NCBI RefSeq assembly: GCF_947493125.1
Contig: NZ_CANLQB010000007.1
Coordinates: 186,001 to 250,000 of the forward strand
Direction: 5' to 3'
DNA length: 64,000 nt
DNA from: an uncultured Roseobacter sp.
GTDB taxonomy: Bacteria > Pseudomonadota > Alphaproteobacteria > Rhodobacterales > Rhodobacteraceae
Of the stretch, positions 31,752 through 46,236 are shown one piece after another (positions within the stretch are counted from its first letter, which is position 1; the number at the start of each line of letters is the position of its first letter). Below the pieces are notes generated by a model. It saw only the letters and a list, made by a program, of their open reading frames with translations, had not been told where the DNA came from and did not search any database. The translations under genes and the position numbers were made by a program.

Positions 31752-32155
31752 GATCTTATTCCTTTCTGAAATGGCCGGCGCTGTGGCTGGCACAGGCCGG
31801 GGCGGGCAAATACAGCGCCCGCGCATTGGAAAGTTTACCATAAAACCGGCTTCTATGCACGTCCCGGCATCTGCGCTGTCCCCGAACCGTGCGGCTCCGG
31901 TCAGGTCGGGTTGATCCTCTGCCCCGCGCAATGCGACAGGGGCAGGCACGGGTTAACCCGACGGCCTGCGATTAACCCGGTGGTAACGTTCGGCGGATGC
32001 GTCAGATGACTGGTCCGGAAATCCCATCATTTTCAAGGCCTAAGCCGCTTCAAACCTGCATCTGAGGCGGCGCGGGCAAGGAGCAGGAAAATGTCATCGG
32101 GGGTGTTGCAGCAGGGCGGTGGGCTGTGCCAAGGTCCGCACCGGGGGACCAACCT
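31752..32155. other. intergenic stretch upstream of the G8-domain gene
   Basis: No supported gene. Several GGTTAACC/TTAACCC-type words occur (about 31951-31978). The stretch separates the lipoprotein gene (minus) from the G8 gene (plus). Confidence 0.4.
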
Positions 32156-32184
32156 ATGGTAGTGTGATTCTACCATGCTACCAT
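32156..32184. promoter_or_regulatory. inverted repeat plus extra half-site before the G8-domain gene
   Basis: ATGGTAG (32156-32162) and CTACCAT (32170-32176) are perfect inverted arms around TGTGATT, and a third CTACCAT follows at 32178-32184. It ends 24 bases before the G8 gene ATG. It may be an operator, or a hairpin that controls translation. Confidence 0.5.
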
Positions 32185-32208
32185 GTAGCTGCGCTGGAGA
32201 ACCGCGAG

Positions 32209-35067
32209 ATGTTTTCATTCCTAAAATGGCTTTATGACACCGAGGGCCTGACCGACTTCTTTCAGAAGTTAACAGAGTACTTCGAGGCGACGAAAGAGAC
32301 GCCTGCGGACGAGGCTCCGACCACGCCCGAGACCGGCCAGGACGACCCGCCCGAGGCGCCGGTCTGTGAAGATCATCCGCAGGACCCCGAGACACCGCCG
32401 GAGGACACCCCGAACGATCCGCCCCAGGACCCGGTGACGCCCCCCGATCACGGCCAGGGAGACACGCCAGAAGACCCGGTGACACCGCCGGAGGACGCGC
32501 CGGACATGCCGCCGGATCACGGCCAGGGCGATGATCCGGACGGCCCGGACGCACCGCCTGAAGACGGGCATGGCGACCATCCGCAGCATCCGGGAACGCC
32601 ACCGGAGGACGGGCATGGCGATCACCCCGAGGAGCATGACAGCCACCTGCCCCAGACCCCGGAAGAGATCGAGGCCTTCGTGGCCGATGTGCTGGCCGGT
32701 CAGGATCACCATCACGATCATGATCCGGGCTCGCCGCAGGGGATGGAGCACATGGCGGCGCTCTCCCTCGTCACACCGTCGGAGGCCACGCATATCGCCA
32801 TCGGTAATGGCAGCTGGTTTGACGCAAGCAACTGGTATCAGGGTCAGATCCCCGATGAGGGTGCGCGCGTGGTGATCCCGGACGGCGTGCATATGACCTA
32901 TGACGGGGTCAGCGCGACAGAGCTCTTCACCGTGCGGGTTGACGGGCATCTGGAGTTCGCCACGGACACCGACAGCGAGATGCGGCTCGACACCATGGTG
33001 GTGACGCCGGACGGGCAGTTGACCATCGGGACGGAAGCGACGCCGGTGCAGCCGGATGTGAGTGTCGATATCGTCTTTGCCGATGGGCCGATTGATACGG
33101 AGTGGGACCCCACCCTGCTCAGCCGCGGGCTAATTGCCCATGGGCAGACCACCATTCACGGTGCCGAGACGGAGGCCCATGAGAAGGTGATCGACGACCC
33201 GATGGCGGGCGACACCTGGGTCGAGTTCGCCAGTGCGCCGAACGGCTGGAACGTCGGCGACACCATCGTGATCGCGGGCACGCATTACCGCGGGCACGAC
33301 TGGAACGGCGTGAACGGGGTACAGCCCTACCCCTCGCAGGACGAGGTGCGCACGATCACCGACATTCAGGATGGCATGGTCTATTTCGAAGAGCCGCTCC
33401 AGCATGATCACGACGCACCGCGGGATGACCTGAGCACCTCGATTGCGAATTACTCGCGCAATGTGACCTTCTCCTCCGAGGAAGGTGCGGAGGCCGAGAT
33501 TTACGAGCGCGGACATGTGATGTTCATGCATAACGACGATGTGGACGTGCGCTATGCCGCGTTCCACGAGTTGGGACGTACGGATAAATCGGAGCCTGCG
33601 CAGGATGCCAGCGATATCACCGACATCGCCTTTGATGACAATGTGAAGGGCCGCTATCCGGCGCATATCCACAAGGCAGGCGTCGGCGATCTGGAGAACC
33701 CCGCCGTGCTGATGGGCAATGCGGTCTTCGGCTCACCCGGCTGGGGGATCGTGCATCACGACTCCAATGCGGTTGTGGACGGCAATGCCACCTTCGACAC
33801 CTTCGGCGCGGGCTATGTCGCGGAATCCGGCAATGAGACCGGCGTCTGGAGCAACAACATCGCCATCTATGCCGAGGGCAACAGCTGGGCCGCGCCGAAG
33901 GATGGCAATGACATCGCCAACTTCGATCTCGGTCAGACCGGCGATGGCTTCTGGTTCCAGGGGCGCATGGTGGAGTCGACCGGGAATATCGCGGCCAGCG
34001 TGAACCACGGGTTCGCCTATATGCACCGCGGGTTCGAAGAGGGGCTCTATACGGCGGATTCGGATGTCTTTGCCGCACCGGATGCGTTCTTTGGCGATGA
34101 CACCGTGTTCCTCGATCACTTCCCGGTGCTGAGCTTTCACGACAACGAGACCTTCGCCGCCAAGGAGGGGCTGCATGTGGTGAAGTCGAACCCGAACCAA
34201 GGCCATGATCTGCACAGCGTCTTCAGCGATTTCACCGCGTGGAACGTGCGCTCGGGCGCGCATTTCGAATACACCTCGCACTACATCATCGAAGGCTTCG
34301 ATCTGATCGGGGAAGGCCCGGGCGTGAGCTATTCGGAGGCGGATGTGGGCATCAGCTTTGGGCCCAACACCACGGATATGACCATCATCGACGCGCAGAT
34401 TGCGGATTTCGACACCGGGATGGACCTCTTCAAGTGGTTTACGCCGAACAATCCGGGCACGCCCGAGCAGTTCCAGCACACGATTGTGGATCCGGTGTTT
34501 CTCAACGTCGATCAGGACTATGAGAACTACAACCCGGCCATCGACGAGATCGTGAATTCGGCTGACCTGCCGCAGGAGGTGCAGCCCGATCTGGTGCTGG
34601 ACCCGATGACCTACCGGGAAGGCTGGCCCGACCCGGGCGCGCGGATCGTGGAGATCAGCGGGACCAAGACGGACAGCCTCGGCCAGACCACGTTCCCTGC
34701 AGGCACGGACAGCTACAACATGGATTTCGAAGATGTCGTGCGCACGCTGGAGACGGACGGGTACTATGCCACCTCGGACGGGCAGAACTATTTCATGGTC
34801 GATCTTTATTTCTCAGACCGGCTCACGGGCGACATCTATACCGAGAGCCATCCGGTGATGATCGACCCGAATGTGCCTCTGGGCAATCAGTTCACCTCCT
34901 ACGGTGACGCGGTGTTCAACGGCGTTGTCGACCTCGACCAGAGCGAGAGCGACCCGACGCAGGAGGCGGCAGAGCTCTTTGCCGAGCTGACCGAAGGCCA
35001 GGTCGTGCTGGCCGAGGACCCGCCCGCACCCGAGGAGGAGGAGTTGCCGGAAGACGCCGCAGCCTGA
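32209..35067 (+). CDS. G8-domain protein with CEMIP-like parallel beta-helix and Pro/Asp/His-rich N-terminus
   Basis: A 952-residue acidic protein; ATG 32209 follows GGAG by about ten bases. Residues 1-30 (MFSFLKWLYDTEGLTDFFQK) look amphipathic rather than like a signal peptide. Residues 35-150 are a low-complexity stretch of PPEDxPDxPPDHGQGD-type units. A G8 domain follows (about 195-300: GNGSWFDASNWYQGQIPDEGARVVIPDG). A beta-helix region (about 440-640) has YPAHIHKAG and SPGWGIVHHDSNAVVDGNAT, resembling eukaryotic CEMIP/TMEM2 hyaluronan-degrading proteins. The C-terminus is acidic. No RTX repeats were seen, so the export route is unclear. It may bind or cut a polysaccharide. Confidence 0.8.
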   Translation: MFSFLKWLYDTEGLTDFFQKLTEYFEATKETPADEAPTTPETGQDDPPEAPVCEDHPQDPETPPEDTPNDPPQDPVTPPDHGQGDTPEDPVTPPEDAPDMPPDHGQGDDPDGPDAPPEDGHGDHPQHPGTPPEDGHGDHPEEHDSHLPQTPEEIEAFVADVLAGQDHHHDHDPGSPQGMEHMAALSLVTPSEATHIAIGNGSWFDASNWYQGQIPDEGARVVIPDGVHMTYDGVSATELFTVRVDGHLEFATDTDSEMRLDTMVVTPDGQLTIGTEATPVQPDVSVDIVFADGPIDTEWDPTLLSRGLIAHGQTTIHGAETEAHEKVIDDPMAGDTWVEFASAPNGWNVGDTIVIAGTHYRGHDWNGVNGVQPYPSQDEVRTITDIQDGMVYFEEPLQHDHDAPRDDLSTSIANYSRNVTFSSEEGAEAEIYERGHVMFMHNDDVDVRYAAFHELGRTDKSEPAQDASDITDIAFDDNVKGRYPAHIHKAGVGDLENPAVLMGNAVFGSPGWGIVHHDSNAVVDGNATFDTFGAGYVAESGNETGVWSNNIAIYAEGNSWAAPKDGNDIANFDLGQTGDGFWFQGRMVESTGNIAASVNHGFAYMHRGFEEGLYTADSDVFAAPDAFFGDDTVFLDHFPVLSFHDNETFAAKEGLHVVKSNPNQGHDLHSVFSDFTAWNVRSGAHFEYTSHYIIEGFDLIGEGPGVSYSEADVGISFGPNTTDMTIIDAQIADFDTGMDLFKWFTPNNPGTPEQFQHTIVDPVFLNVDQDYENYNPAIDEIVNSADLPQEVQPDLVLDPMTYREGWPDPGARIVEISGTKTDSLGQTTFPAGTDSYNMDFEDVVRTLETDGYYATSDGQNYFMVDLYFSDRLTGDIYTESHPVMIDPNVPLGNQFTSYGDAVFNGVVDLDQSESDPTQEAAELFAELTEGQVVLAEDPPAPEEEELPEDAAA

Positions 35068-35122: not shown

Positions 35123-35343
35123 CCATGCAGAAATTCGTCAGAAACGTGTTCCAGATCACAGACGCCCCCCGCACAGCTGCGCTAGGGCGGAAGAGCCGAG
35201 CCCGCAAAATCGTTGCTTTTCCGAAGGGTACGGTAGTAACAACTGTAGTTAACGAACGCATTGTAGTTTCATGCGAGGCCCTTGTTCCGGCACAGTCGAT
35301 TGGCCCGGGAGACTTTCGGGCCGCGGCTGGTAGGAAATTTGAT

Positions 35344-35961
35344 ATGGCTGATGAAACTACAAAAGTAATTACGTGGCGCCCCATGGGGCTCGATGACATA
35401 CCCCGGATTTCGGACTGGTTCTGGAACTTTACGGATGCCGCACTGTTCGACCGGACCCTTCCGGTGCCGGTCAGTGTCGATGCCCTGCGTGAAAGCTGGC
35501 GCGACTCGATTGTGCAGAAATCGCAGCCGGGAGCCTATTGGTTCATCGCCGAGGACGATGCCACACCCGTGGGGGTCGCGGGGCTGGAGTCGGTCAACTA
35601 CATTCAGGGGGACGCGGTGCTGCCGTTCTTTGTCACAGATGGGTTTCGCAAGAAGGGTCTTGCCACGGCGATGACCGTCGCGATGCTCGATCTGGCGTTC
35701 AAGCGTCTGCGGCTGCACCGGGTGACCACCTATTACCGTTCGGACAATGCGGCGACGGCACGCGTGCTGGAAAAATTCGGCTTTGCCGAGGAAGGCCGCT
35801 TTCGCGAAGCCTGGTTCGTCGACGGCAAGCGGCAGGATACGGTGATCGCCGGCATTTTAGAAGCGGAATGGATTGCAACTCGCGACAAGGTCATCGAAGA
35901 TGTGGCGGGGTCCTGCAATCTGTCGTTTTCGCCAACCTGTTGGAAAGAAAGTCTTGGCTGA
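35344..35961 (+). CDS. GNAT-family N-acetyltransferase
   Basis: A 205-residue protein starting at ATG 35344 behind GTAGGAA; the longer frame back to 35125 has no ribosome site. The acetyl-CoA binding motif A appears as VTDGFRKKGLATAMTVAMLDLAF near residues 98-120, followed by RLHRVTTYYRSDNAATARVLEKFGFAEEGRFRE, typical of RimJ/RimL-like enzymes. The acceptor, a protein N-terminus or small molecule, is unknown. Its last eight bases overlap the cyclase gene, implying joint translation. The C-terminal 20 residues are not conserved-looking. Confidence 0.82.
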   Translation: MADETTKVITWRPMGLDDIPRISDWFWNFTDAALFDRTLPVPVSVDALRESWRDSIVQKSQPGAYWFIAEDDATPVGVAGLESVNYIQGDAVLPFFVTDGFRKKGLATAMTVAMLDLAFKRLRLHRVTTYYRSDNAATARVLEKFGFAEEGRFREAWFVDGKRQDTVIAGILEAEWIATRDKVIEDVAGSCNLSFSPTCWKESLG

Positions 35962-37744
35962 TACTGCGAAAATACCTGAAGCGCGCGAGCAGCTGAAACG
36001 ACGCCTGGTGGCGATCGTCTTTGCCGATGTGGCCAATTTCAGCACGATGATGAGCGTCGATGAGGTGCGCACGACCATCTCGGTCACCGAACGGCTGGAG
36101 AAATTCCGCAAGGCGATCCGGTCCTACTCGGGTGAATTCAAGGGATCGGCCGGCGACAGCGCCTTCATGATCTTCGAAAGTGCCGTGGACGCGGTGACCT
36201 TCGCGGTTGAGATGCAAAAGACGCTGGAGAAGGAAAACAAGGATTTGCCGGAAGAGGAGAAGATCCACTTCCGCTTTGGCATCAACCTCGGGGAAATTCT
36301 GGTCAGCGGCAATGAGATGACCGGCGAAAGCATCAACATCGCCGCACGGATCGAGGCCTTCGCCGCCCCGGGGCAGGTCTGTATTTCGGGCGCGGCCTAC
36401 GACCACGTCTGCACCAAGCTGAAGTACGGCTATGAGTACCTTGGCGGGCAGGATTTCAAGAACATCGGCCGCACCATCGACGTCTTCCAGGTGCATGAGA
36501 ACCCCACGACGGCGGCGATGACGCCGGGTCTGCGGCGCAATCTGGAGAACTCCGCGGAGTTCAAGGAGCGCCCGATTGCGAACCAGTCCATCGTGGTGCT
36601 GCCCTTCGGGTTTCAGGGCAGCGATCTTGGGGACCAGTGGTTCGCGGATGGCCTGACCGAGGATGTGACCACGAACCTGTCGCGCTTTCAGGAGTTCTTC
36701 GTGATCGCGCGGGGCTCGGCCAATATGTTTGCCGATCGCGCGAAATCACCGGCACAGGCCGCGCGCGAATTGGGCGTGCGCTATGCCGTCGATGGCACCG
36801 TGCGAAAGGCTGGCTCGCGCATCCGGATCACGCTGCAGTTGCTCGATGCGCTGCAGGATCGGACGATCTGGGGCGAGCAGTACAATCGCGACGTCGAGGA
36901 TATCTTCGATCTGCAGGACGAGATCACGCAGATCATCGTGACCGCCACAGCCGCGCGGATCGAGGCCACCGAACGCGAGCGCATGCGTCTGTTGCCGCCC
37001 GCGAACCTGATGGCCTATGGCTTTGTGCTGAAAGGTCACCGGCATGTGCTGAAGTACACGCAGCCGGAAGTCCGGCGGGCGCGCGATCTCTATGAGAACG
37101 CCATCGGCAGCGATGCGCGCTATGCCCGCGCCTATGCCGCCAAGTCGCGGACGTTCAACCTCGATTGGCGCTATGACTGGACCGACCAGCCGGAGGTGGC
37201 GCTGGACGATGCGCTCAACTTCGCGCGGGAGGCGATCGAGCTTGACGCCGCCGATGCGCGCGGATTTGGCGAGTTGGGCTTTGCACATCTTTACCGCAAG
37301 GAACATGATCCGGCGATCAATGCCTATGATCGCGCGCTGAAGCTGAACCCGAACGACGCCGATCTGATGTCAGACATGGGCGACGCGCTGGTGCATATGG
37401 GTCGGTCCGACGAGGCGGTGGAGCTCTTGCAGAAGGCGATGCGGCTGAACCCGTTCTATCCAGATCAGTACATCTGGCATCTGGGCGGCGCGTATTTCGC
37501 GCTCAAGCAATATGAGGACGCCATCGACACGATCCAGAAGATGCAGAACCCGACCGAAGGCCGCCGGATCCTCGCGGCGAGCTATGCCTATCTGGACCGG
37601 CTGGCCGAAGCGCGCGAGCAGGCGGATCTGGTGCGTCAGGCGCACCCGAATTTCTCAGTGGATCGCTGGGCGGCTGTCCAGCCCGACAAGTTCGAGGATG
37701 ACGTGGAGCATTTCTTCGAAGGGCTGAAACGCGCAGGCCTCTGA
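35954..37744 (+). CDS. class III adenylate/guanylate cyclase with TolB-like region and TPR repeats
   Basis: A 596-residue protein. TTG 35954, preceded by GGAAAG, is preferred; an ATG at 35873 would add residues with no family similarity. The cyclase domain (about 15-190) keeps both metal-binding Asp residues (VFADVANFS and AGDSAFMIF) and the Asn/Arg pair in SINIAARIEAFAAPGQ, so it should be active. A TolB-like segment follows (IVVLPFGFQGSDLGDQWFADGLTEDV), then about five TPR-like units (ALKLNPNDADLMSDMGDALVHMG; AMRLNPFYPDQYIWHLGGAYFAL). This architecture is common in alphaproteobacteria. Whether it makes cAMP or cGMP cannot be read. Confidence 0.85.
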   Translation: MADTAKIPEAREQLKRRLVAIVFADVANFSTMMSVDEVRTTISVTERLEKFRKAIRSYSGEFKGSAGDSAFMIFESAVDAVTFAVEMQKTLEKENKDLPEEEKIHFRFGINLGEILVSGNEMTGESINIAARIEAFAAPGQVCISGAAYDHVCTKLKYGYEYLGGQDFKNIGRTIDVFQVHENPTTAAMTPGLRRNLENSAEFKERPIANQSIVVLPFGFQGSDLGDQWFADGLTEDVTTNLSRFQEFFVIARGSANMFADRAKSPAQAARELGVRYAVDGTVRKAGSRIRITLQLLDALQDRTIWGEQYNRDVEDIFDLQDEITQIIVTATAARIEATERERMRLLPPANLMAYGFVLKGHRHVLKYTQPEVRRARDLYENAIGSDARYARAYAAKSRTFNLDWRYDWTDQPEVALDDALNFAREAIELDAADARGFGELGFAHLYRKEHDPAINAYDRALKLNPNDADLMSDMGDALVHMGRSDEAVELLQKAMRLNPFYPDQYIWHLGGAYFALKQYEDAIDTIQKMQNPTEGRRILAASYAYLDRLAEAREQADLVRQAHPNFSVDRWAAVQPDKFEDDVEHFFEGLKRAGL

Positions 37745-37761: not shown

Positions 37762-38268
37762 TCAGTCCCGTGCGCCGCTGATCCGGGTTCCGGACATCTT
37801 TGCGCCGGACACCTTGGCACCGGAGACCTTCGCCCCCGACACCTTCGCGCCGGAGACCTTGGCCCCGGCCACGCGGCCAGCAGCTTCAAGCCCGTCCGCC
37901 GCCGCCGCGAGCAGGACGTCTTCGAACTTGCCCACATCGACGTCGAGCCTGACGGTCTTGACGTCTTTGTCCACAGTCCAGGCCTTCAGCGAGTCGAAGA
38001 ATTCCTTGTCGCGCGGGTTTGGGCCGGGAAGACGCTCCTTATTTGCATCTTTGCTATCGTTCCCGACGAGAAACAGAACCGGCGTGCCAAATTCAATGTA
38101 GGCGCCGTCATAGGTAAAGCCGTAGATCCGAGCCAGCTGTTTATCGGCTTTCTTCAGAGCGGCATCGGTGGAGTCGTCGGCCAGAACCGCCAGGTCGTCC
38201 ACTTCACGTCCAAAAAGGACAATTTTTTCAGATGCGTAGATTGATTCTTTGTAAATCGCTTCGGTCAT
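37762..38268 (-). CDS. protein with C-terminal GAKVS pentapeptide tail; candidate substrate of the YcaO-TfuA system
   Basis: A 168-residue protein starting at ATG 38268. Residues 1-132 look like a folded acidic alpha/beta domain (EKIVLFGREVDDLAVLADDS; GAYIEFGTPVLFLVGNDSKD) that I do not recognise. Residues 135-164 are six pentapeptide units: GAKVS four times, then GAKMS and GTRIS, ending GARD. The tail is basic, Gly/Ser-rich and probably disordered. It is the last gene of a minus-strand series with YcaO, TfuA and a metallopeptidase. A leader-like domain plus a repetitive tail suggests a modified substrate (RiPP-like), but no modification can be seen from DNA. A structural pentapeptide-type tail is the alternative. 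Confidence 0.75.
   Translation of the reverse strand: MTEAIYKESIYASEKIVLFGREVDDLAVLADDSTDAALKKADKQLARIYGFTYDGAYIEFGTPVLFLVGNDSKDANKERLPGPNPRDKEFFDSLKAWTVDKDVKTVRLDVDVGKFEDVLLAAAADGLEAAGRVAGAKVSGAKVSGAKVSGAKVSGAKMSGTRISGARD
37777..37866 (-). repeat. six 15-bp coding units for the GAKVS tail
   Basis: Six in-frame 15-base units encode the pentapeptides. Third-codon bases differ among units (Val GTC or GTG, Ser TCC or TCG, Ala GCC, GCG or GCA, Gly GGC, GGG or GGT), while the amino acids of the first four are identical. This is not a CRISPR array. Confidence 0.85.
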
Positions 38269-38340
38269 AATGTTGGTCCTTCTGTGAGGAAAAACAGTCC
38301 TCATGCTGCAGCTGCCTTGTTGTTATCCTATTCCTCGTTT

Positions 38341-39597
38341 TCAGTCCATTGGAAGCATCGTTCTGACGGAGTTCGCGTGGCTGTCCTCGCCCAGCGGCTC
38401 CAACTGCGGGCCGACGTCGACCAGACCGATGTCGCGCAGGTGGAAGTTGCCGCGAATGATGGTGGCGAAGCGCCCGCCCGTATGCGCCTGATCGACCTCC
38501 ATAAAGGCCTCGGCCACGTCGATGAAATTCAGATCCTGACGGCTCAGCAACTGCCAGGTATCGGCGAGGTAGGTCCCCATGATGTCGCGCGCGTCGAGCA
38601 GCGCCCGTTTGAACTGATCCGGGTGGTCCGCATAGGCCGCGTCAAACATGTCCTGCATCACAGGCGCGTACTCGGCCGTTGCGAGCAACTGGTCGGAGAG
38701 ATCCTCCATCTCGGGCGAAATCGCCCCGTAGTCGAGCAGCATCTCGTGGAAGATATCGACGAGGATGTCGAAAAAGGCGCCGGTCAGCGGCTGACCCAGG
38801 TGATGCTCCTTCCTCCAGCCTTCGGCGAACTGGCACAGGCGCGTGTCATTCGCCGCGATGCGGATCTGCTTGTTGTCGGACAACTCCGCGATCCGGTTCG
38901 CCGCATTGAGCGTGTAGAGATTGCCGCGTGTGTTGGCGAGCAGGCGATCCACCAGCGAGTTGAAATGCAGCGAGGAGATCAGCGCCACGAGGTCCGCCGC
39001 ACTTTCGTGGAACCCGAAATACTCGCCGGTGACATTCTGGGGGTCGGGCACACCGATCTCGGAGTAGATGATGGCGTGCCCCAACTCATGGGCGATGACA
39101 TCGAAATTGAGCGCGAAGGGCTTGAGCGTTCCGGTGCTGGCGTCCGCCCCCATTTCGATGAATCCGAAGCCCGAATAGGCGTTGTCGAGCGAATGCAGGA
39201 TCGTCAGCTCCTGCCGCTCATAGACCGCATCCGCCTGCCAGGGAATTTCGCGACCGAAATAGTCCTCCCAGATGTCCATGACAAAGCGCACGGTGCCGAA
39301 GAGATGGGCCGCCTCGAACTGCGGAGTGCCCGGTTCGAGATAGTCGAAATGGCCCTCTTCATCGGGCATGGCCGGCGCTTCGATATCGCCGGTCCAGGGC
39401 GGCGCCATGGGGTCCGAGCCATCGGGCGAGATGCCATAGGGCTGCGGCTTGCCGATGGGAAAGATGGTGTACATGCGGGCGTCTTGTGGCCCGGGCCCGA
39501 GACTGCCGGGCGGAGAGGAGACCTCGACGATCTCGGGCTCCTCGAACTCGTCCAGAAACTGAGGCTGCGGAAACAGTTTGAACCGCGTTCCTTGCAT
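38341..39597 (-). CDS. HELGH zinc metallopeptidase (gluzincin-like) in the YcaO-TfuA locus
   Basis: A 418-residue protein. The zinc site is H170-E171-L-G-H174, and a likely third ligand is E198 in GFHESAADLVALISSL, the M4/thermolysin-like arrangement. There is no signal peptide, and the first 90 residues are Pro-rich and loop-like. The C-terminal region is helical (LLDARDIMGTYLADTWQLLSRQDLNFIDVAEAFMEV). It lies between TfuA and the GAKVS-tail gene, in the same direction, 57 and 72 bases away. In RiPP loci such a peptidase often removes a leader. Whether it does so here is inference. Confidence 0.82.
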   Translation of the reverse strand: MQGTRFKLFPQPQFLDEFEEPEIVEVSSPPGSLGPGPQDARMYTIFPIGKPQPYGISPDGSDPMAPPWTGDIEAPAMPDEEGHFDYLEPGTPQFEAAHLFGTVRFVMDIWEDYFGREIPWQADAVYERQELTILHSLDNAYSGFGFIEMGADASTGTLKPFALNFDVIAHELGHAIIYSEIGVPDPQNVTGEYFGFHESAADLVALISSLHFNSLVDRLLANTRGNLYTLNAANRIAELSDNKQIRIAANDTRLCQFAEGWRKEHHLGQPLTGAFFDILVDIFHEMLLDYGAISPEMEDLSDQLLATAEYAPVMQDMFDAAYADHPDQFKRALLDARDIMGTYLADTWQLLSRQDLNFIDVAEAFMEVDQAHTGGRFATIIRGNFHLRDIGLVDVGPQLEPLGEDSHANSVRTMLPMD

Positions 39598-39654
39598 GGC
39601 GGAGACCCCTTACCGAACACTGCCCTTGTTGTTAGCGCAGATTGCGCTCTGCGT

Positions 39655-40458
39655 CTATTCCTGCAACAGCGACAGACCGGCGGTGAGGCGGTAGCCGCCC
39701 TTCTCCGCCGTCGCCCGCGCCTGCGCCGCGGCCCGTTGCCGCCAGAGGCCGACGCCTTCGTGCCAAAGCGCCGTCTCCTCGAAATGGGTCTCCGTCCGGG
39801 CAGGTGCCGGGGCGCCCTGCGCGAGATGTTGCAGCAAGGCCTCGGCATCCAATCGCTTTTGATCGACCGCATGGGTCGCGATCCAGTGGCGCAGATCCGT
39901 CAGCCTGCTGTCGCCGAGCCGAGGCGCCGCGGGATCGGACAGGACGCTGTCCCAACTGCGGGTCTTGTAGAATTGCGCCTTGGCAGATGCCACGAGAGCT
40001 GCCTCTTCAGTGGCCTCTATCAGTCCAGCGGCACTTGCAGCGGCCAGCGTCGCGCGGGCGTTGACCATGGCAAGGCTCAGGTTCGGATAGCCCAGGTCGG
40101 CCGGGCCATGCAGCAAGGCAACCTCGTCGTCATCGTCCAGCACGCCGTCGCGATAAGCTTCGAAAATCCCACCAACGCCCTGCATGCCGAAGCGCTCCAT
40201 CTCGGCGGCGCGCAGAGCGCCCATGCTGGAGGCGCCCAGCACCGCGATGCCACGGGTCAGCGCCCAGAGGATCTCCTTGTGCCAGACCGCCGGTGCGCCC
40301 TCGAAAAACCCGTCGATGATGGCGATGGCTCCCGGCGCCTCCTGGGCGGCCAGGTAAACGTCGCCCTGCTGGACGGGCGGGCGCAGATCGACGGGCTTCA
40401 GCAGCGCGCTGTCCACCCCGGTGATCGACGGGCCCGCAAAGAGGATGATCTCAGGCAT
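39655..40458 (-). CDS. tfuA: TfuA-like protein
   Basis: A 267-residue protein starting at ATG 40458, overlapping the YcaO stop by eight bases. It has the TfuA core: FAGPSITGVDSALL near residue 6, WHKEILWALTRGIAVLGASSMGALRAAEMERFGM near 58-92, and DDDDEVALLHGP near 110. TfuA proteins accompany certain YcaO enzymes. In methanogens the YcaO-TfuA pair thioamidates a glycine of methyl-coenzyme M reductase, with TfuA thought to supply or handle sulfur. In bacteria the pair is found in trifolitoxin and thioamide-type clusters. Its coupling here to YcaO makes joint action very likely. Confidence 0.92.
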   Translation of the reverse strand: MPEIILFAGPSITGVDSALLKPVDLRPPVQQGDVYLAAQEAPGAIAIIDGFFEGAPAVWHKEILWALTRGIAVLGASSMGALRAAEMERFGMQGVGGIFEAYRDGVLDDDDEVALLHGPADLGYPNLSLAMVNARATLAAASAAGLIEATEEAALVASAKAQFYKTRSWDSVLSDPAAPRLGDSRLTDLRHWIATHAVDQKRLDAEALLQHLAQGAPAPARTETHFEETALWHEGVGLWRQRAAAQARATAEKGGYRLTAGLSLLQE

Positions 40459-41683
40459 CCGCACCTCCGGTGTCTGCGACGGCAGCGGCGCGGGGTCCGG
40501 GCACATAGGCGTCGTCGTCGTGGGGCGCTTCCAGGCCGGGGATGATCACGCGCACGACCGGAATGTCGAAGGGCGCGCGCGTGAGATCGACGACGCAGAT
40601 CTCCTCGATGCCCGCGCCCTGCAGCCGGGATTTGAGCCAGGCCAGATCGGCGTGGAGGTCAGCGTGTCGCGCCCCGGCCCCGCTGTCAAAACGCCTCTGG
40701 TGCGGCGGCGGCGGCAGCAGATCGGCAAAGGCGTTGGTTTTGGCAGCACGTCCCGCGGCGGTGAATTCGGCGTGAAAGAGATCTTCGCGGGCGCCGGAGA
40801 TGTAATTGAGCCGGGTCTGCGCCGCCTCATTCAGCGTGCGATGCAGCGCGATGGTCGGATCCGGGTGGGTGCCGGAGCCAAGACCGAGGTGGCCGGTCTC
40901 GCTCTGCGGCTCCTGCACCACCGCCATGAAGCTCGGCACGCCAAGATCGGTGGTGATCTCCCAGATCGCCACGGCGAGCCCGGCCTGTGCAAAGCGCGCC
41001 AGAGAGGCGCGCAGGGGCGCGTCCGTGATGCTCTCGGCATCCAGCCGCGTCCGGGCGCGATGCGCGACGGGCCTCGCATGCCAGAGCGCCAGCGCATCGC
41101 GCTCGATCACCTCGCAGATGCCGTGGCAGATCGCCTCCATCACGTGGTTGCCGGAGGCCAGACCATTTGTGCTGGCCGGATAGCAGCCCGCCTCCCCGAT
41201 CGCAGGATAGGTATAATCCGCATGCACCATCTCGAAGGGGACAAGCCGGTCCTCATCGCTCAGAATGTCGCGCGCGGTGATCCAGTGCTGCCGTTCTGTG
41301 CGGGGTGGCTGCGGGCGCGGGGTGCGCGGCAGGCGCGCGAGATCGACAAAGCGGTGCCGCGGCGCCAGATCGGCGACGCTGGCATAGTAGAGGGGGCGGT
41401 CGATATGCTCGGCATGCCAGATCTCGATGGATTCCATCAGCGCCGAGGCCTTGGCGTGCGCCAGCGACATGCCCTTGCCCTGAGACACCGCGATGGAGCG
41501 GGCGTTGGGCCGGATGGCGATCACCACCGGCAGGCCCACCCGGTCGAGCCCGGTCACATTCGCCAGCCGGGTGATCCCGAAGGCGTCCTTGTGCGGCAGG
41601 ATGCGCGCCAGCGTCTGTTCTGCGGGGCAGATGCGTTGCGAGCCACCCAGCAGTTGTTTTTCGATATGCGCGGTCAGGTCCAC
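40451..41683 (-). CDS. YcaO-family ATP-dependent backbone-modifying enzyme
   Basis: A 410-residue protein with GTG start at 41683 behind GGGAAGG. YcaO ATP/Mg-binding blocks are clear: SQGKGMSLAHAKASALMESIEIWHAE near residues 67-92, NGLASGNHVMEAICHGICEVIERDALALW near 172-200, and HRTLNEAAQTR near 280. The C-terminus has YVPGPR rather than the PxPxP end of azoline-forming YcaOs. YcaO enzymes activate a peptide amide oxygen with ATP for cyclodehydration, or for thioamide or amidine formation. With TfuA the thioamide route is favoured. No E1-like or dehydrogenase partner is nearby. Confidence 0.92.
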   Translation of the reverse strand: MDLTAHIEKQLLGGSQRICPAEQTLARILPHKDAFGITRLANVTGLDRVGLPVVIAIRPNARSIAVSQGKGMSLAHAKASALMESIEIWHAEHIDRPLYYASVADLAPRHRFVDLARLPRTPRPQPPRTERQHWITARDILSDEDRLVPFEMVHADYTYPAIGEAGCYPASTNGLASGNHVMEAICHGICEVIERDALALWHARPVAHRARTRLDAESITDAPLRASLARFAQAGLAVAIWEITTDLGVPSFMAVVQEPQSETGHLGLGSGTHPDPTIALHRTLNEAAQTRLNYISGAREDLFHAEFTAAGRAAKTNAFADLLPPPPHQRRFDSGAGARHADLHADLAWLKSRLQGAGIEEICVVDLTRAPFDIPVVRVIIPGLEAPHDDDAYVPGPRAAAVADTGGADA

Positions 41684-41782: not shown

Positions 41783-44700
41783 TCAGGCGTCCTGCGGCAC
41801 CGTCTCGGCCTTGAAGATCCGGCGCAGCGTGACGTAGAAGACCGGTGTCAGGAACAACCCCAGGAAGGTCACGCCGGACATCCCGAAGAAGACCGCCGTG
41901 CCCAGCGCCTGCCGCATTTCGGAGCCCGGACCCGTCGCGATCATCAGCGGGATGACCCCGAGGATGAAAGCAAAGGCCGTCATCAGGATCGGGCGGAACC
42001 GCAGGCGCGCGGCGTCAAGCGCGGCATCGACCGGGCCGAGCCCTCGCTCCTCCTGCGCCTGTTTGGCGAACTCCACAATCATGATGGCATTCTTGGCCGC
42101 GAGCCCCACCAGCACGATCAGCCCCACCTGGGTCAGCACGTTGTTGTCCATGCCGCGAAACATCACCCCCAGAAGGGCCGCAAGGACCGACAGCGGCACG
42201 ATCAGGATGATCGCCACAGGCAAGACCCAGCTTTCATAGAGTGCGGCGAGGAAGAGAAACGCAAAGAGCACGGAAAAGGCGAAGATGTAGCTCGCCGTGT
42301 CACCCTGGTTGCGCTCCTGGAAGGCCAATTCGGTCCATTGGTAGTCCACCCCCGGCGGCAGCAGGGACTCGGCCAGCTGCTCCATCGCGATGAGCGCTTC
42401 ACCGGTGGAGACGCCCGGCGCGGCGTTGCCCTGCACCGGCACCGAGACCTGCTGGTTGTAGCGCTGCACCAGTGCCGGCCCCGCCGTGTCCCGCATGGAG
42501 ACCAGCGTGCCGAGCGGCACCAGCGCGCCCGTGGCCGAGCGCACGCGCAGCGCGGAGATGTCGTCCTCCTCGAGGCGGAACTGCTCATCCGCCTGCGCCC
42601 GCACCTGGAAGAGGCGTCCATAGGCATTGTAGTCGTTCACGTAGGATGAGCCGAGATTGATCGCCAACGTCTCGAAGATCGCGCCGATGGGGACGTTGAG
42701 CATCTGCGCGCGGACCCGGTCGATTTCGAGGAACACCTGCGGCGAACCTGCGGAGAAGGTCGTGAAGACCCCCTGCACCTGCTCGGACTGCTGCGAGGCG
42801 CCCATGATCGCATAGGCCGACTGCAGCACCCGGGTCATGTCGGCGCTTTCGTTCTCGCGCAGCTGCAGCTTGAAACCGCCGCCAGTACCCACGCCCCGAA
42901 CGGCGGGCGGCGCTATCGCGATGATGAAGGCCTCGCGCAGGCTTTGCATCCGGCCGAAGAGCTGGCCGATGATGTCGCCCGAGGTCAGGCCGCTCTCGAT
43001 CCGGTCGTCGAAGCTTTCAAAGGTGGTGAAAATCACCCCCTGATTGGTCGCATTGGTGAAGGTCGCGCCCGAAAACCCGGCGAAGGCCACGGCATTCGTC
43101 ACCCCTGGCGTCTCGAGCGCCACTTCGGTTGCCTGACGGATCACCGCATCGGTCCGCTCCAGCGAGGCACCATCGGGCAGCTGCACAACGACGATGGCAT
43201 AGCCCTGATCGGCTTCGGGAATGAAGCCCGTAGGCACCTTCTGACTGATCCAGTAGGTCGCGCCCAGCAACCCTACGAACACCGAGAGCGACAGGCCGAG
43301 CATGGCCTTGGAGCAGACAAGCCGTTTCACCACGGCCATGTACCCGCGTGTGAGCGCATCGAACCCGCGGTTGAAACCGGAGGCGAGCGGCCCGAACACC
43401 CGCGTCCCGATGCTCGGACGGTCGCGGGCCTCTTTCGATTGCAGCAGGATCGCAGCCAGCGCCGGAGACAGGCTGAGCGAATTGATCGACGAGATGACGG
43501 TCGCAACCGAGATGGTCACGGCAAACTGGGTATAGAATTGCCCGGTGATGCCCGGCACGAAGGCCGAGGGCACAAAAACTGCAATCAGCACCAGAGTTGT
43601 GCCGATGATCGCGCCCTGCACCTCATCCATGGTCCGCGCCGAGGCCTGTCGGGGGGTCATGCCGTCGGCGATGTTGCGTTCGACGTTTTCGACCACGACG
43701 ATGGCGTCATCCACGACAATCCCGATGGCGAGGATCAGACCAAAGAGCGTGAGCAGGTTCAGCGTGTAGCCCAGCGCCAGCATCACGGCAAAGGTGCCGA
43801 TCAGCGAGACGGGGATCGCCAACAAGGGAATGAGGGCGGTGCGCCAGTTCTGCAGGAAGACGACGATCACGATGACCACCAGCAGAACCGCCTCGAAAAT
43901 CGTCTCGTAGACCGCACTCACCGAGGATGCGATGAACTCCGTCGGGTTATAGACCACCTGGTATTCGAGGCCTGCGGGGAAGTCCTCGGCCAGTTCATCC
44001 ATGACGGCGATGATCTCATCCGCCGAGGCGAGCGCGTTTGATCCCGGCCTCTGGAAGATGCCCAACGCCACGGCCGGCTTGTTGTTCAGGTAGGAGTTGG
44101 TGATGTAGGAGCGCGCACCGATCTCGACCCGCGCCACATCACGCACGCGCACAACGCGTCCGTCATCCGACGCCCGCACGATGACGCGCCCAAACTCGCG
44201 CGGTGTTTGCAGACGGCCTTGGGTCGTGATCGTGACCTGGAAGGCGCTTTCGCTGTTGTTCGGCGGTGCGCCCAGCGATCCGCCCGACACCTGCACGTTC
44301 TGCTCGCGCAGGGCACCGACCACATCACCTGCAGTGAGGCCGAGCGAGGCCAGCCTGTCAGGGTCAAGCCACACGCGAGCAGAAAACTCGCGTTCGCCGA
44401 AGATCTGCAGATCCCCAACCCCGTCGAGCCGCACCAGCCTGTCGCGCACCCGCGCGCGGGCATAGTTGGACACGTAGAGCTGGTCGAAACTCTCATCCGG
44501 CGAGAGCATGTGCACGACCATCATCAGGTCGGGCGAGGATTTCGTGGTGGTCACGCCCAGCGCGCGCACCTCTTCGGGCAGCCGCGGCTCGGCAATGGCC
44601 ACGCGGTTCTGCACCAGAACCTGTGCTGCATCAAGGTCGGTGCCAAGCTCGAAGGTGATGGTCAGGCTCATCGCTCCATCTGCCGTCGCGTAGGACGACA

Positions 44701-44932
44701 GGTAGAGCATATTCTCCACCCCGTTGATCTCCTGCTCCAGCGGTGTGGCGACCGTTGCGGCCACCGTGGCGGCATCGGCGCCCGGGTAACTGGCGCGCAC
44801 GACGATGGAGGGCGGCGCGATCTCGGGGTACTGCTCCACCGGCAGTTGAAAGTAGGACACGATGCCGACAATGGTCAGCAGGATCGAGATGACGGCAGCG
44901 AAGATCGGGCGCGTGACGAAGAAGCGGCCCAT
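41783..44932 (-). CDS. RND multidrug efflux transporter (AcrB/HAE1 family)
   Basis: A 1049-residue inner-membrane antiporter of full family length. It starts MGRFFVTRPIFAAVISILLTIVGIVSYFQLPVEQYPEI, the typical HAE1 opening. The proton-relay Asp pair is in GIVVDDAIVVVENVERNIADGM near residue 410, and a second repeat begins near 540 with the fold's internal symmetry. Large periplasmic loops lie between TM1-2 and TM7-8. It starts one base after the membrane-fusion-protein stop, so the two are coupled. No outer-membrane TolC partner gene is adjacent. Confidence 0.95.
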   Translation of the reverse strand: MGRFFVTRPIFAAVISILLTIVGIVSYFQLPVEQYPEIAPPSIVVRASYPGADAATVAATVATPLEQEINGVENMLYLSSYATADGAMSLTITFELGTDLDAAQVLVQNRVAIAEPRLPEEVRALGVTTTKSSPDLMMVVHMLSPDESFDQLYVSNYARARVRDRLVRLDGVGDLQIFGEREFSARVWLDPDRLASLGLTAGDVVGALREQNVQVSGGSLGAPPNNSESAFQVTITTQGRLQTPREFGRVIVRASDDGRVVRVRDVARVEIGARSYITNSYLNNKPAVALGIFQRPGSNALASADEIIAVMDELAEDFPAGLEYQVVYNPTEFIASSVSAVYETIFEAVLLVVIVIVVFLQNWRTALIPLLAIPVSLIGTFAVMLALGYTLNLLTLFGLILAIGIVVDDAIVVVENVERNIADGMTPRQASARTMDEVQGAIIGTTLVLIAVFVPSAFVPGITGQFYTQFAVTISVATVISSINSLSLSPALAAILLQSKEARDRPSIGTRVFGPLASGFNRGFDALTRGYMAVVKRLVCSKAMLGLSLSVFVGLLGATYWISQKVPTGFIPEADQGYAIVVVQLPDGASLERTDAVIRQATEVALETPGVTNAVAFAGFSGATFTNATNQGVIFTTFESFDDRIESGLTSGDIIGQLFGRMQSLREAFIIAIAPPAVRGVGTGGGFKLQLRENESADMTRVLQSAYAIMGASQQSEQVQGVFTTFSAGSPQVFLEIDRVRAQMLNVPIGAIFETLAINLGSSYVNDYNAYGRLFQVRAQADEQFRLEEDDISALRVRSATGALVPLGTLVSMRDTAGPALVQRYNQQVSVPVQGNAAPGVSTGEALIAMEQLAESLLPPGVDYQWTELAFQERNQGDTASYIFAFSVLFAFLFLAALYESWVLPVAIILIVPLSVLAALLGVMFRGMDNNVLTQVGLIVLVGLAAKNAIMIVEFAKQAQEERGLGPVDAALDAARLRFRPILMTAFAFILGVIPLMIATGPGSEMRQALGTAVFFGMSGVTFLGLFLTPVFYVTLRRIFKAETVPQDA

Positions 44933-44933
44933 C

Positions 44934-46061
44934 TCAGTTGCCCGCGATCAGGGGCAGATCAATCTTCTCCGGCGTCACGACGCTGCCGGGCCGGGCACGC
45001 ACAACCCCTTCAACCACAATGACTTCCGAGCCATCGAGCCCGTCGCGGATCACGCGGTAGCCGTCGATGCGCGGCCCCGGGCGCACCTCCAGCGGAACGA
45101 CGTTGCCCTCGCCGTCGACGCTCATCACCAGGCGCCGGTTCTGATCGGCCACGATGGCCTCGTCGGGGACCAGGATGCCTTCGTAGGGCAAGGAGCCGGG
45201 CACGTTCACGCGCCCGAAGAGGCCCGGGGTCAGCACCTCATCGGGGTTGTCGAGGACGGCGCGGATGCGCATGGTTCCGGTGTTCTGGTCTATCCGGTTC
45301 TCGGAGAAGTCCAGAACGCCCGTCTGCGGCGGAATGCTGTTGTCGGAGAGGGTGACCTTGACCTCCAGACCACCGCCGCCTTCCTGCAGCGAGACGCCGC
45401 GCGCCCGGGCATCGCGCGCGTAGGCAAGGAAATAGCGCTCGTCGATGTCGAAGTAGAAGTGGATCGGGTCGGAGGACACGATGCTGGTCATCACGCTCTC
45501 ATTGGCCGTCACCAGATTGCCGGGGTCGATCTGGCTGCGGTCGATGCGTCCGGCCATTGGCGCGCGGATCTGAGAGTATTCCAGGTCAAGCTCGGCCAGC
45601 TCCACCGCGGCGCGCGCCTGTTCGAGCCCGCCTTGCGCCGCCAGATAGGCCTCGCGCCGTTCGTCCACCGTGCTCTGCGGAATATTGCCGTTCTGGATCA
45701 GCGATTGCGCACGCTCGAGCTGCTCGGAGGCAAAATCATAGGTCGCCTCAGCCACGTCGATCTGTGCCTGCGCCTGACGCAGGGCGGTGTTGAACTGCCT
45801 GGGGTCGATTGTGAAGAGGATCTGCCCCTCGTCCACCAGGCTGCCGTCGTCGAATTGCACCGTTTCGAGATAGCCCGACACGCGGGAGCGCACGACAACC
45901 TCGGCACGCGCCTCGAAACGCCCGACAAACTCGTCATCCTCGACGATGGTCTTGACCACGGGGTTTGCGACGGTGACCGGAGGCGGCTCCTGCTGCGCTG
46001 TCGCGGGTATGGAAATCACGATCATGCCGAGGGCCAGAAGCGATGCGGTAAAACGTTTCAT
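44934..46061 (-). CDS. efflux RND transporter periplasmic adaptor (AcrA/MFP)
   Basis: A 375-residue adaptor starting at ATG 46061 with signal peptide MKRFTASLLALGMIVISIPATAQ. The lipoyl-like half motifs are RVSGYLETVQFDDGSLVDEGQILFTIDPRQF near residues 60-90 and YSQIRAPMAGRIDRSQIDPGNLV near 160. A helical hairpin (LRQAQAQIDVAEATYDFASEQLERAQ) lies between them. It joins the RND pump to an outer-membrane channel. No cysteine follows the leader, so it is not a lipoprotein. It is the first gene of the two-gene operon; the 175 bases upstream hold no gene or recognised operator. Confidence 0.93.
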   Translation of the reverse strand: MKRFTASLLALGMIVISIPATAQQEPPPVTVANPVVKTIVEDDEFVGRFEARAEVVVRSRVSGYLETVQFDDGSLVDEGQILFTIDPRQFNTALRQAQAQIDVAEATYDFASEQLERAQSLIQNGNIPQSTVDERREAYLAAQGGLEQARAAVELAELDLEYSQIRAPMAGRIDRSQIDPGNLVTANESVMTSIVSSDPIHFYFDIDERYFLAYARDARARGVSLQEGGGGLEVKVTLSDNSIPPQTGVLDFSENRIDQNTGTMRIRAVLDNPDEVLTPGLFGRVNVPGSLPYEGILVPDEAIVADQNRRLVMSVDGEGNVVPLEVRPGPRIDGYRVIRDGLDGSEVIVVEGVVRARPGSVVTPEKIDLPLIAGN

Positions 46062-46236
46062 AAAAAGAATCCGCCAAATTGTGTCACGCGTCGCCAGATT
46101 AATCTGGACGAAGGCAAATGAAAGCAATTTATTGAAAAGCGGAGGAAATAAGCCGGTCGGCTGATGCGAGTGGTGCAAACGCGACCGGGCGGGCGATGAT
46201 CGTCAGACATTGTGGCCCGAGGCCGTCGGAAACGCG

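What the first reader, a model, noticed from the sequence alone, without database searches (positions are those of the whole stretch)
37762..41683. Four-gene YcaO-TfuA-metallopeptidase locus with a pentapeptide-tailed candidate substrate
YcaO (41683-40451) and TfuA (40458-39655) overlap, and an HELGH metallopeptidase and a 168-residue protein with a GAKVS-repeat tail follow on the same strand. Known YcaO-TfuA pairs make thioamides on McrA or on RiPP peptides. Here no usual RiPP precursor, E1 partner, dehydrogenase or exporter is present; instead the only companions are a peptidase and a protein whose tail repeats a short motif. The inference is a new backbone-modification system whose substrate is the repeat tail. 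The protein's folded N-terminal domain would be unusual for a leader.
Basis: partly seen in the sequence, partly recalled or inferred. Interest (0 to 1): 0.92.

Follow-up and report, generated by a model that had tools for sequence, protein, structure and literature searches.

The report
Repeat-tailed substrate of thioamide-making enzymes
A conserved gene set in marine and soil bacteria probably adds sulfur to the backbone of a protein tail made of short identical repeats, with a protein-cutting enzyme and a signalling enzyme encoded beside it; this has not been tested in the laboratory.

Summary
YcaO, TfuA, a thermolysin-like peptidase (PEP) and a 168-residue repeat-tail protein (TAIL) form a tight operon.
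TAIL looks like a leader-core precursor: the N-domain is predicted mostly folded, the tail disordered. The C-terminus changes by lineage: SGARV/SGAKV/SGSRV, RAVMAS, DLVGRS, GMNV, SRSGGxx, or non-repeated. Units differ in DNA but little in protein. The GMNV unit has no Ser, Thr or Cys, so it could carry thioamides but not azolines.
Against: two opened Rhizobium plasmids keep cyclase, PEP and TAIL with no YcaO or TfuA, and 49 of 135 plasmid records carry that PEP type. SGARV tails weakly resemble pentapeptide repeats.
Most likely an undescribed class of thioamidated, multi-core RiPP-like system. No chemistry was tested.

The parts
40451..41683 (-). YcaO (410 aa), TfuA-associated type; SQGKG, ESIE and EVIERD present, no C-terminal PxPxP
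   Evidence: PF02624 E 7.7e-79; nearest solved structure MJ1094 (6pe3) E 1.1e-32; best NCBIfam model TIGR03266 (McrA-glycine thioamidation YcaO) 227.3 bits, under its cut-off of 365. Only YcaO found in the window's genome
39655..40458 (-). TfuA (267 aa), start overlaps the 3' end of YcaO
   Evidence: PF07812 E 1.7e-46; solved TfuA 6xp8 E 1.2e-32; NF033432 204.7 bits, under its cut-off of 235.2
38341..39597 (-). PEP: thermolysin-like (gluzincin) metallopeptidase, no obvious signal peptide by eye; H170-E171-H174, E198, D202 and H265 invariant in 17 aligned members
   Evidence: PF01447 only at E 0.048 (14.6 bits, cut-off 22.4), so a remote relative at best
37762..38268 (-). TAIL: candidate precursor (168 aa), conserved N-domain about residues 12-126 plus repeat tail; single copy in the genome
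37765..37869 (-). Repeat region of TAIL, residues 134-168 (AGAKV, 3x SGAKV, SGAKM, SGTRI, SGAR, D); proposed modified core
   Evidence: (pLDDT about 30-35)
35873..37744 (+). Convergent class III nucleotide cyclase-TPR protein (true start probably later in the ORF)
   Evidence: PF00211 E 6.2e-9; conserved in 12 of the 14 TAIL-bearing loci
35125..35961 (+). GNAT acetyltransferase upstream of the cyclase (true start probably later in the ORF)
   Evidence: conserved in 12 of the 14 TAIL-bearing loci (in L024 a 96-residue match only)

Best explanation
A thioamide-forming YcaO-TfuA pair modifies the protein TAIL. TAIL has a conserved folded N-terminal domain that acts as a very large leader, and a flexible C-terminal tail carrying the modification site, amplified in many lineages into 3 to about 12 tandem core units. 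YcaO activates a backbone amide with ATP and TfuA brings the sulfur, giving a thioamide in each unit. The thermolysin-like peptidase then cuts the modified tail from the leader domain or processes it. The neighbouring class III nucleotide cyclase regulates the system, and in the SGARV group a GNAT may acylate the product. Shown here by sequence: gene linkage, leader-core architecture, few protein changes between units that differ in DNA, variable unit length, lack of Ser/Thr/Cys in one unit type, and the cyclase association. Inferred: that TAIL is the substrate, that the chemistry is thioamidation, which residue is modified, and the roles of the peptidase, cyclase and GNAT.
For: Linkage: 14 of the 16 loci found with YcaO have TfuA, PEP and TAIL in the same order; of the other two (35% identical, actinobacterial) L028 lacks PEP and TAIL, and L027's contig ends about 0.5 kb after TfuA. 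Of 18 genomes with a PEP match at E <= 1e-80, TfuA is adjacent in 18, YcaO in 17, TAIL in 17 of 17 evaluable (16 by BLAST or in the window, L065 by profile comparison at 95.6% probability, E 1.2e-8); in G463 the contig ends at PEP. In the odd one, G624, YcaO lies on another contig about 2 kb from a cyclase homologue. Of 10 plasmid records that appear in both partial row listings (PEP; TfuA), PEP and TfuA are adjacent in 9. Architecture: a shared N-domain with C-termini of different repeat types, nearly uniform within most proteins; mean pLDDT of 10-residue blocks 30-35 for the tail against 66-88 for most blocks from residue 11 to 120. Units: pS 0.30-1.04 against pN 0-0.34 with units picked by pattern; pS 0.31-1.23 against pN 0-0.39 with equal-length blocks picked as the most self-similar stretch; 22 proteins each. 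The GMNV unit has no Ser/Thr/Cys and 32 of 35 C-termini (last 45 residues) have no Cys. YcaO and TfuA are closest among solved structures to MJ1094 and 6xp8; the window YcaO has no C-terminal PxPxP (its link to azoline formers is recalled). Precedents: thiovarsolin VarA, a repeating precursor with a thioamide in APR (PMC6511847, passages), and thioamidated Asn in the std system (PMC13174530, passages).
Against: No chemistry was tested. Two opened Rhizobium plasmids (L029, L030) carry cyclase, PEP and TAIL with no TfuA and no YcaO anywhere on the record, and 49 of 135 plasmid records have a PEP at least 80% identical to that type (only these two were opened), so TAIL and PEP can persist without a linked pair. 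The one record of 10 where PEP and TfuA are both listed but not adjacent (NZ_CP021032) has a PEP about 51% identical to the window's. No residue motif is common to all unit types. SGARV-type tails hit pentapeptide-repeat models: 10 of 25 members at E <= 0.01, best 1.3e-5, up to 3 of 25 for single NCBIfam pentapeptide models, and the profile hits designed pentapeptide beta-helices. The window tail and L024 are less uniform than the rest. L063 and L040 have tails unlike the main groups. Both repeat measures choose their units and so favour uniformity. No conserved exporter was seen. No cyclase was found in the stretches held for L019, L026 and L056.
Confidence: 0.62

Rival explanations
1. The core system is cyclase-PEP-TAIL: TAIL is a regulatory partner or substrate of the peptidase (inhibitor, activator or degradation target), and YcaO-TfuA is an optional layer that modifies the peptidase or only tunes TAIL.
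For: R. etli-type plasmids have cyclase, PEP and TAIL without TfuA or YcaO on the record; 49 of 135 plasmid records carry this PEP type (two opened). On the midpoint-rooted PEP tree they fall beside the SGARV clade inside a 23-row group whose other 21 rows have TfuA beside them, so the pair was lost, moved or gained.
Against: YcaO is beside PEP in 17 and TfuA in 18 of the 18 strong-match genomes. The R. etli-type units (SRSGGxx) lack the K/R-V step of the SGARV unit, as expected if the enzyme that reads it is gone; the chromosomes of these strains were not checked.
Confidence: 0.18
2. The tail is a short pentapeptide-repeat beta-helix with a structural or nucleic-acid-mimic role; YcaO-TfuA acts on something else.
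For: ARVSG fits the pentapeptide-repeat consensus (recalled); 10 of 25 TAIL homologues hit PF00805 at E <= 0.01, some hit NCBIfam pentapeptide models, and the profile hits designed pentapeptide beta-helices in the PDB.
Against: The window protein itself is under the Pfam cut-off (15.3 against 20.2 bits). AlphaFold2 leaves the tail at pLDDT 30-35 (15 sequences). Seven units would make fewer than two coils. C-termini at the same place in relatives have 4-, 6- and 7-residue units or none.
Confidence: 0.1
3. It is a cyclic-nucleotide signalling or defence module (Pycsar-like) with YcaO-TfuA and PEP as effectors.
For: The cyclase accompanies most loci and has weak Pycsar-cyclase hits, best E 1.5e-6.
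Against: No PADLOC hit at E <= 0.01 for YcaO, TfuA, PEP, TAIL or GNAT, so no Pycsar effector among the six proteins scanned. Cyclase-TPR proteins are generic regulators (recalled). Nearby defence genes were not searched for systematically.
Confidence: 0.06

Closest known systems
Thiovarsolin pathway (VarA/VarY/VarT), Streptomyces varsoviensis (PMC6511847, passages)
   Same: YcaO-TfuA pair with a precursor whose C-terminal part is a tandem array of core units; thioamide established there
   Different: Here: a folded leader-like domain of about 120 residues, 4- to 7-residue units, an M4-like peptidase, a cyclase and often a GNAT; no heme-oxygenase-like protein, ATP-grasp ligase, amidinotransferase or MFS exporter among the nine proteins scanned. 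[quoted passage not shown]
McrA glycine thioamidation by YcaO-TfuA (PMC5589413, search listing and start of abstract only; details recalled)
   Same: Best NCBIfam models and closest solved relatives belong to this kind; stand-alone YcaO with TfuA; the substrate is a protein, not a small peptide
   Different: McrA is a large folded enzyme modified at one glycine; here the proposed site is a repeated, disordered tail; scores are under the NCBIfam cut-offs
std cluster (StdA, StdGH), Streptomyces thermodiastaticus (PMC13174530, passages)
   Same: YcaO-TfuA acting on a conserved C-terminal motif (Asn thioamide) plus a cluster-encoded peptidase domain
   Different: Single non-repeated core motif, MNIO and carbamoyltransferase partners, S8/S53 peptidase, actinobacterial
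E. coli YcaO thioamidation of ribosomal protein uL16 (PMC13063428, passages)
   Same: Shows that a YcaO can modify a protein in its folded context
   Different: No TfuA, no dedicated substrate gene or peptidase, single Met site
NCBIfam TIGR04510, putative peptide modification system cyclase
   Same: The window cyclase matches it at E 1.4e-13, over residues 277-591, in line with such cyclases marking peptide-modification loci
   Different: Far under the model's cut-off (50.2 against 400 bits), so not a member; a MamA-like TPR model scores slightly better

Membership tests
TfuA-associated (thioamide-type) YcaO | YcaO domain with ATP-binding motifs, gene adjacent to tfuA, no C-terminal PxPxP | tested here: met
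   window protein:
TfuA-associated (thioamide-type) YcaO | Forms a backbone thioamide | not testable with these tools
   needs mass spectrometry
RiPP precursor (leader plus core) | Conserved leader with variable or repeated core encoded beside the modifying enzyme | tested here: met
RiPP precursor (leader plus core) | Core is enzymatically modified and released | not testable with these tools
   no experiment possible
Thiovarsolin family | Partner genes (heme-oxygenase-like, ATP-grasp, amidinotransferase, MFS) beside YcaO-TfuA | tested here: not met
   Pfam scan of nine proteins from 32.1 to 46.2 kb found none of them
McrA thioamidation proteins (TIGR03266, NF033432) | Score over the NCBIfam cut-off | tested here: not met
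   227.3 against 365 bits and 204.7 against 235.2 bits
Pentapeptide-repeat proteins (PF00805) | Pfam score over cut-off | tested here: not met
   window TAIL 15.3 against 20.2 bits; 10 of 25 homologues hit at E <= 0.01, their scores against the cut-off not shown
Pentapeptide-repeat proteins (PF00805) | Beta-helix fold of the repeats | tested here: inconclusive
   AlphaFold2 leaves residues 127-168 under pLDDT 50; only 15 sequences in the alignment
M4 (thermolysin) peptidases | HExxH, downstream ExxxD and catalytic His | tested here: met
   H170, E171, H174, E198, D202 and H265 invariant in 17 members; equivalence to thermolysin residues is recalled
M4 (thermolysin) peptidases | Pfam score over cut-off | tested here: not met
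   14.6 against 22.4 bits; 1 of 17 members at E <= 0.01
Pycsar defence | Pycsar cyclase with a dedicated effector | tested here: inconclusive
   weak PycC hits for the cyclase, none for the other five proteins

The most novel reading that the evidence does not exclude
[quoted passage not shown] Its core repeats switched unit length and sequence (SGARV, RAVMAS, DLVGRS, GMNV) while the leader domain was kept, and Rhizobium etli-type relatives may use the same leader and peptidase without thioamidation.
Probability: 0.3. Interest if true: 0.86.

Novelty: new variant of a known kind. Interest (0 to 1): 0.7.

Why it matters
It gives a specific, testable substrate for a group of uncharacterised alphaproteobacterial YcaO-TfuA pairs; one survey counted over 500 putative thioamidated-RiPP clusters in Rhizobium (PMC8120280, passages), of which an unknown share is of this kind. 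The unit without Ser, Thr or Cys is a natural test that separates thioamide from azoline chemistry. If true, it also ties nucleotide-cyclase signalling to a backbone modification and offers a multi-site thioamidation substrate for enzymology.

Tried and rejected
Pentapeptide-repeat protein: considered seriously, down-weighted. Exporter: the RND pair upstream is not conserved; of 22 loci scanned, only distant homologues in L025 and a distant HlyD in L058. Cyclase-YcaO fusion: L040 has one open frame of 1370 aa over both, but it stops matching the cyclases of L078 and L064 about 100 residues before their ends, so it looks like a frameshift and is not used as evidence. Azoline chemistry: not favoured because the GMNV unit has no Ser/Thr/Cys and only 3 of 35 C-termini hold a Cys; the YcaO of that genome is unlinked, which weakens the point. 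Distant peptidases (G575, G1030, G171, G153, G082; E 1e-22 to 1e-4) were left out of the 18-genome count; BLAST with the known proteins found no YcaO, TfuA or TAIL near them in what I held: 7.3 kb for G575, 14 kb for G1030, only 3.3 kb each for the others. In one search, two of the seven genomes (G353, G102) match TAIL over the repeats only, inside frames of over 1200 residues, and were not counted as TAIL. Fold of the N-domain: no Foldseek match at E <= 0.001. The peptidase model was too poor to use (mean pLDDT 51.4). Papers searched. No paper held the four repeat motifs or YcaO, repeat, precursor and Roseobacter together, or YcaO, adenylate cyclase, peptidase and rhizobi together; each gave only the graspetide survey PMC8939145 (passages read), which reports YcaO-TfuA and adenylate cyclases in ATP-grasp loci. 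PMC4603692 (passages) left out TfuA-associated YcaOs as of unknown substrate. The library holds few subscription papers.

Full report
What is there. On the minus strand, YcaO (41683-40451), TfuA (40458-39655), a metallopeptidase with HELGH (39597-38341) and a 168-residue protein (38268-37762) lie head to tail. YcaO and TfuA are clear members of PF02624 and PF07812. Their best NCBIfam models are the McrA-glycine thioamidation pair, below the cut-offs, and their closest solved relatives are MJ1094 (6pe3) and a TfuA-domain protein (6xp8). It is the only YcaO found in the window's genome. The peptidase, here called PEP, is a remote thermolysin-like enzyme (14.6 bits against a cut-off of 22.4), but the residues expected for catalysis are invariant in 17 aligned members (the thermolysin equivalence is recalled). 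The 168-residue protein, here called TAIL, has no Pfam family over cut-off and no NCBIfam hit at E <= 0.1. It ends in AGAKV, three SGAKV, SGAKM, SGTRI, SGAR and D.

Is the association real? A scan of genome contigs with YcaO gave 16 loci. Fourteen (L013-L026) carry TfuA, PEP and TAIL in the same order. The other two are 35%-identical actinobacterial YcaOs: L028 lacks PEP and TAIL, and L027 cannot be judged because its contig ends about 0.5 kb after TfuA. PEP was then sought in 394 family, 385 class and 398 phylum genomes (samples of larger groups that overlap). Eighteen distinct genomes have a match at E <= 1e-80. TfuA is adjacent in 18 and YcaO in 17. TAIL is adjacent in 17 of the 17 that can be judged; L065 was found by position and then confirmed by profile comparison (95.6% probability, E 1.2e-8), and in G463 the contig ends at PEP. 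In G624 the system is split: TfuA-PEP-TAIL on one contig, and its only YcaO on another, about 2 kb from a cyclase homologue, which links both to the system. Five weaker PEP matches (E 1e-22 to 1e-4) showed no YcaO or TfuA in the stretches held and were left out. PEP also matches 132 plasmid records, mostly Rhizobium, and 135 with a Rhizobium PEP as query; I opened the surroundings of six records. Of 10 records that appear both in the listed PEP rows and in the listed TfuA rows (60 of 353 records), PEP and TfuA are adjacent in nine; the tenth (NZ_CP021032) has a PEP about 51% identical to the window's.

Architecture of TAIL. Aligned homologues share an N-domain (LFGRxVxDL ... ARIYGFSYEG ... LFLVHG ... 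W ... TIRLD ... FExVLL). AlphaFold2, on window and sequences only (15), gives most 10-residue blocks from residue 11 to 120 a mean pLDDT of 66-88 (50 for residues 31-40) and residues 131-168 about 30-35; overall mean 62.7. No solved fold matches at E <= 0.001. The C-terminus differs by lineage: SGARV, SGAKV or SGSRV units, RAVMAS units (11 counted by pattern), DLVGRS x4, GMNV x4, SRSGGxx x3, or non-repeated. The non-repeated group of ten loci ends mostly in ...RSP..YA..M..(A/G)HR(G/N)G(K/R)L. A [GA][KR][VLIMF] step is found in the last 45 residues of 9 of these 10 and of 18 of the 25 other proteins, so the SGARV array may be an amplified version of one ancestral site; this is inference, and the other unit types lack the step. 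Of the 25, 24 end in an acidic residue, against 6 of 10 in the non-repeated group.

Few protein changes between units. With units picked by a residue pattern, units are distinct in DNA in 21 of 22 proteins (8 of 11 distinct in L065), with pS 0.30-1.04 and pN 0-0.34 by a simple count. With equal-length blocks and no residue pattern, but choosing the most self-similar stretch, pS is 0.31-1.23 and pN 0-0.39; 13 of 22 proteins have no amino-acid difference at all among the blocks, and the window (0.75 identity) and L024 (0.53) are among the least uniform. Both choices favour uniformity, but synonymous sites far exceed the others in nearly all. So the repeats are not fresh copies and their amino-acid sequence is largely held by selection, as expected of enzyme-read core units. 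The pentapeptide-repeat reading is not excluded: 10 of 25 homologues match PF00805 at E <= 0.01, up to 3 of 25 match single NCBIfam pentapeptide models, and the profile matches designed pentapeptide beta-helices. It does not explain the 4-, 6- and 7-residue units in the same place.

Chemistry. The GMNV unit has no Ser, Thr or Cys, and 32 of 35 C-termini have no Cys (the 35 include near-identical pairs). If that unit is the modified part, azoline formation is not possible there, whereas thioamidation does not depend on a side-chain nucleophile; Asn thioamidation by a YcaO-TfuA pair was reported in 2026 (PMC13174530, passages). The caveat is that in this genome YcaO is unlinked. The closest functional parallel is thiovarsolin: a repeating precursor, a thioamide between Pro and Arg of APR, and no specific protease in the cluster (PMC6511847, passages). 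According to PMC13174530, characterised YcaO-TfuA RiPPs are thioviridamide-like, thiovarsolins, thioamidated thiopeptides and chimeric lanthipeptides, plus its own std class; the gene content here resembles none of these as far as I could compare. The global survey PMC8120280 (sections 11 and 12 and passages) reports over 500 Rhizobium clusters and does not contain the word repeat in its main text; some loci of the present kind are probably in its set. Its supplements could not be read.

A class III nucleotide cyclase accompanies the system in three architectures. Cyclase-TPR, convergent with TAIL, is in 12 of the 14 TAIL-bearing loci, in L055, L057 and partly in L058. A form with an added transcription-activator domain is convergent in L063. 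A large cyclase-AAA protein lies upstream of YcaO in L059, L060, L061, L064, L065 and L067 (Pfam), in L075 to L078 (BLAST to the L067 protein only), in L041 (annotation) and, with a broken frame, in L040. Over the 17 genomes that can be judged, it is linked in 15, unlinked but beside YcaO in G624, and not seen in G054 (L056); it is also not seen in L019 and L026. The window's genome holds only five PF00211 matches in 4.8 Mb, so chance proximity is unlikely. A GNAT gene follows the cyclase in 12 of the 14 loci (a partial match in L024) and in L055 and L057. The upstream RND pump is not conserved.

Evidence that cuts the other way. R. etli CFN 42 p42c and Rhizobium sp. NLR16a p5 carry cyclase, PEP and TAIL with no TfuA and no YcaO anywhere on those plasmids; the chromosomes could not be checked. 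This PEP type is not rare: 49 of 135 plasmid records are at least 80% identical to it, though only two were opened. The PEP tree puts the two beside the SGARV clade inside a group whose other 21 rows have TfuA (support 91/82 and 100/99, midpoint root), which suggests loss or relocation, but it also shows that PEP and TAIL make sense together without a linked pair. The Nostoc plasmid PEP lies with two ferritin-like proteins and a radical SAM enzyme, with no TAIL found by BLAST and no TfuA or YcaO on the record.

Verdict. Most likely an undescribed class of thioamidated, RiPP-like system with a folded leader domain and multi-core tail (0.62), a new variant of a known kind. Substrate identity, chemistry, site and the roles of peptidase, cyclase and GNAT remain to be tested.

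Noticed in passing
L029 5028-9312 and L030 5027-9349: Rhizobium etli-type loci: cyclase-TPR, PEP and a TAIL with SRSGGxx units plus a small unknown protein, without YcaO or TfuA on the plasmid
   Followed up: partly
L039 / L069 (Nostoc plasmid): PEP homologue beside two ferritin-like proteins and a radical SAM protein, without YcaO or TfuA on the record and without a TAIL found by BLAST: the peptidase may serve other modification systems
   Followed up: partly
L057, L062, L063, L066: TfuA open frames of 443-514 aa; in the three scanned (L057, L062, L066) Pfam covers only the TfuA domain, leaving a long C-terminal part unnamed
   Followed up: partly
L040 21-4133 (Sinorhizobium meliloti Ak57): Cyclase-AAA and YcaO in one open frame of 1370 aa; the match to the cyclase stops early, so probably a frameshift rather than a fusion. 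TfuA there is present but unannotated
   Followed up: yes
L052 (Rhizobium phaseoli N161 plasmid): A second TfuA-YcaO pair on the same plasmid as the PEP-linked one
   Followed up: no
L024 9380-10318 and L058 8284-9162: TAIL homologues of 313 and 293 aa with long insertions inside the N-domain; L024 has degenerate repeat units
   Followed up: no
window 32119-35067: 982-aa protein with G8 and CEMIP-like beta-helix domains next to the GNAT gene; 88-89% identical partial neighbour at the edge of L014 and L015
   Followed up: no
window 41783-46178: RND efflux pump and membrane-fusion protein directly upstream of YcaO on the same strand; not conserved with the system
   Followed up: yes
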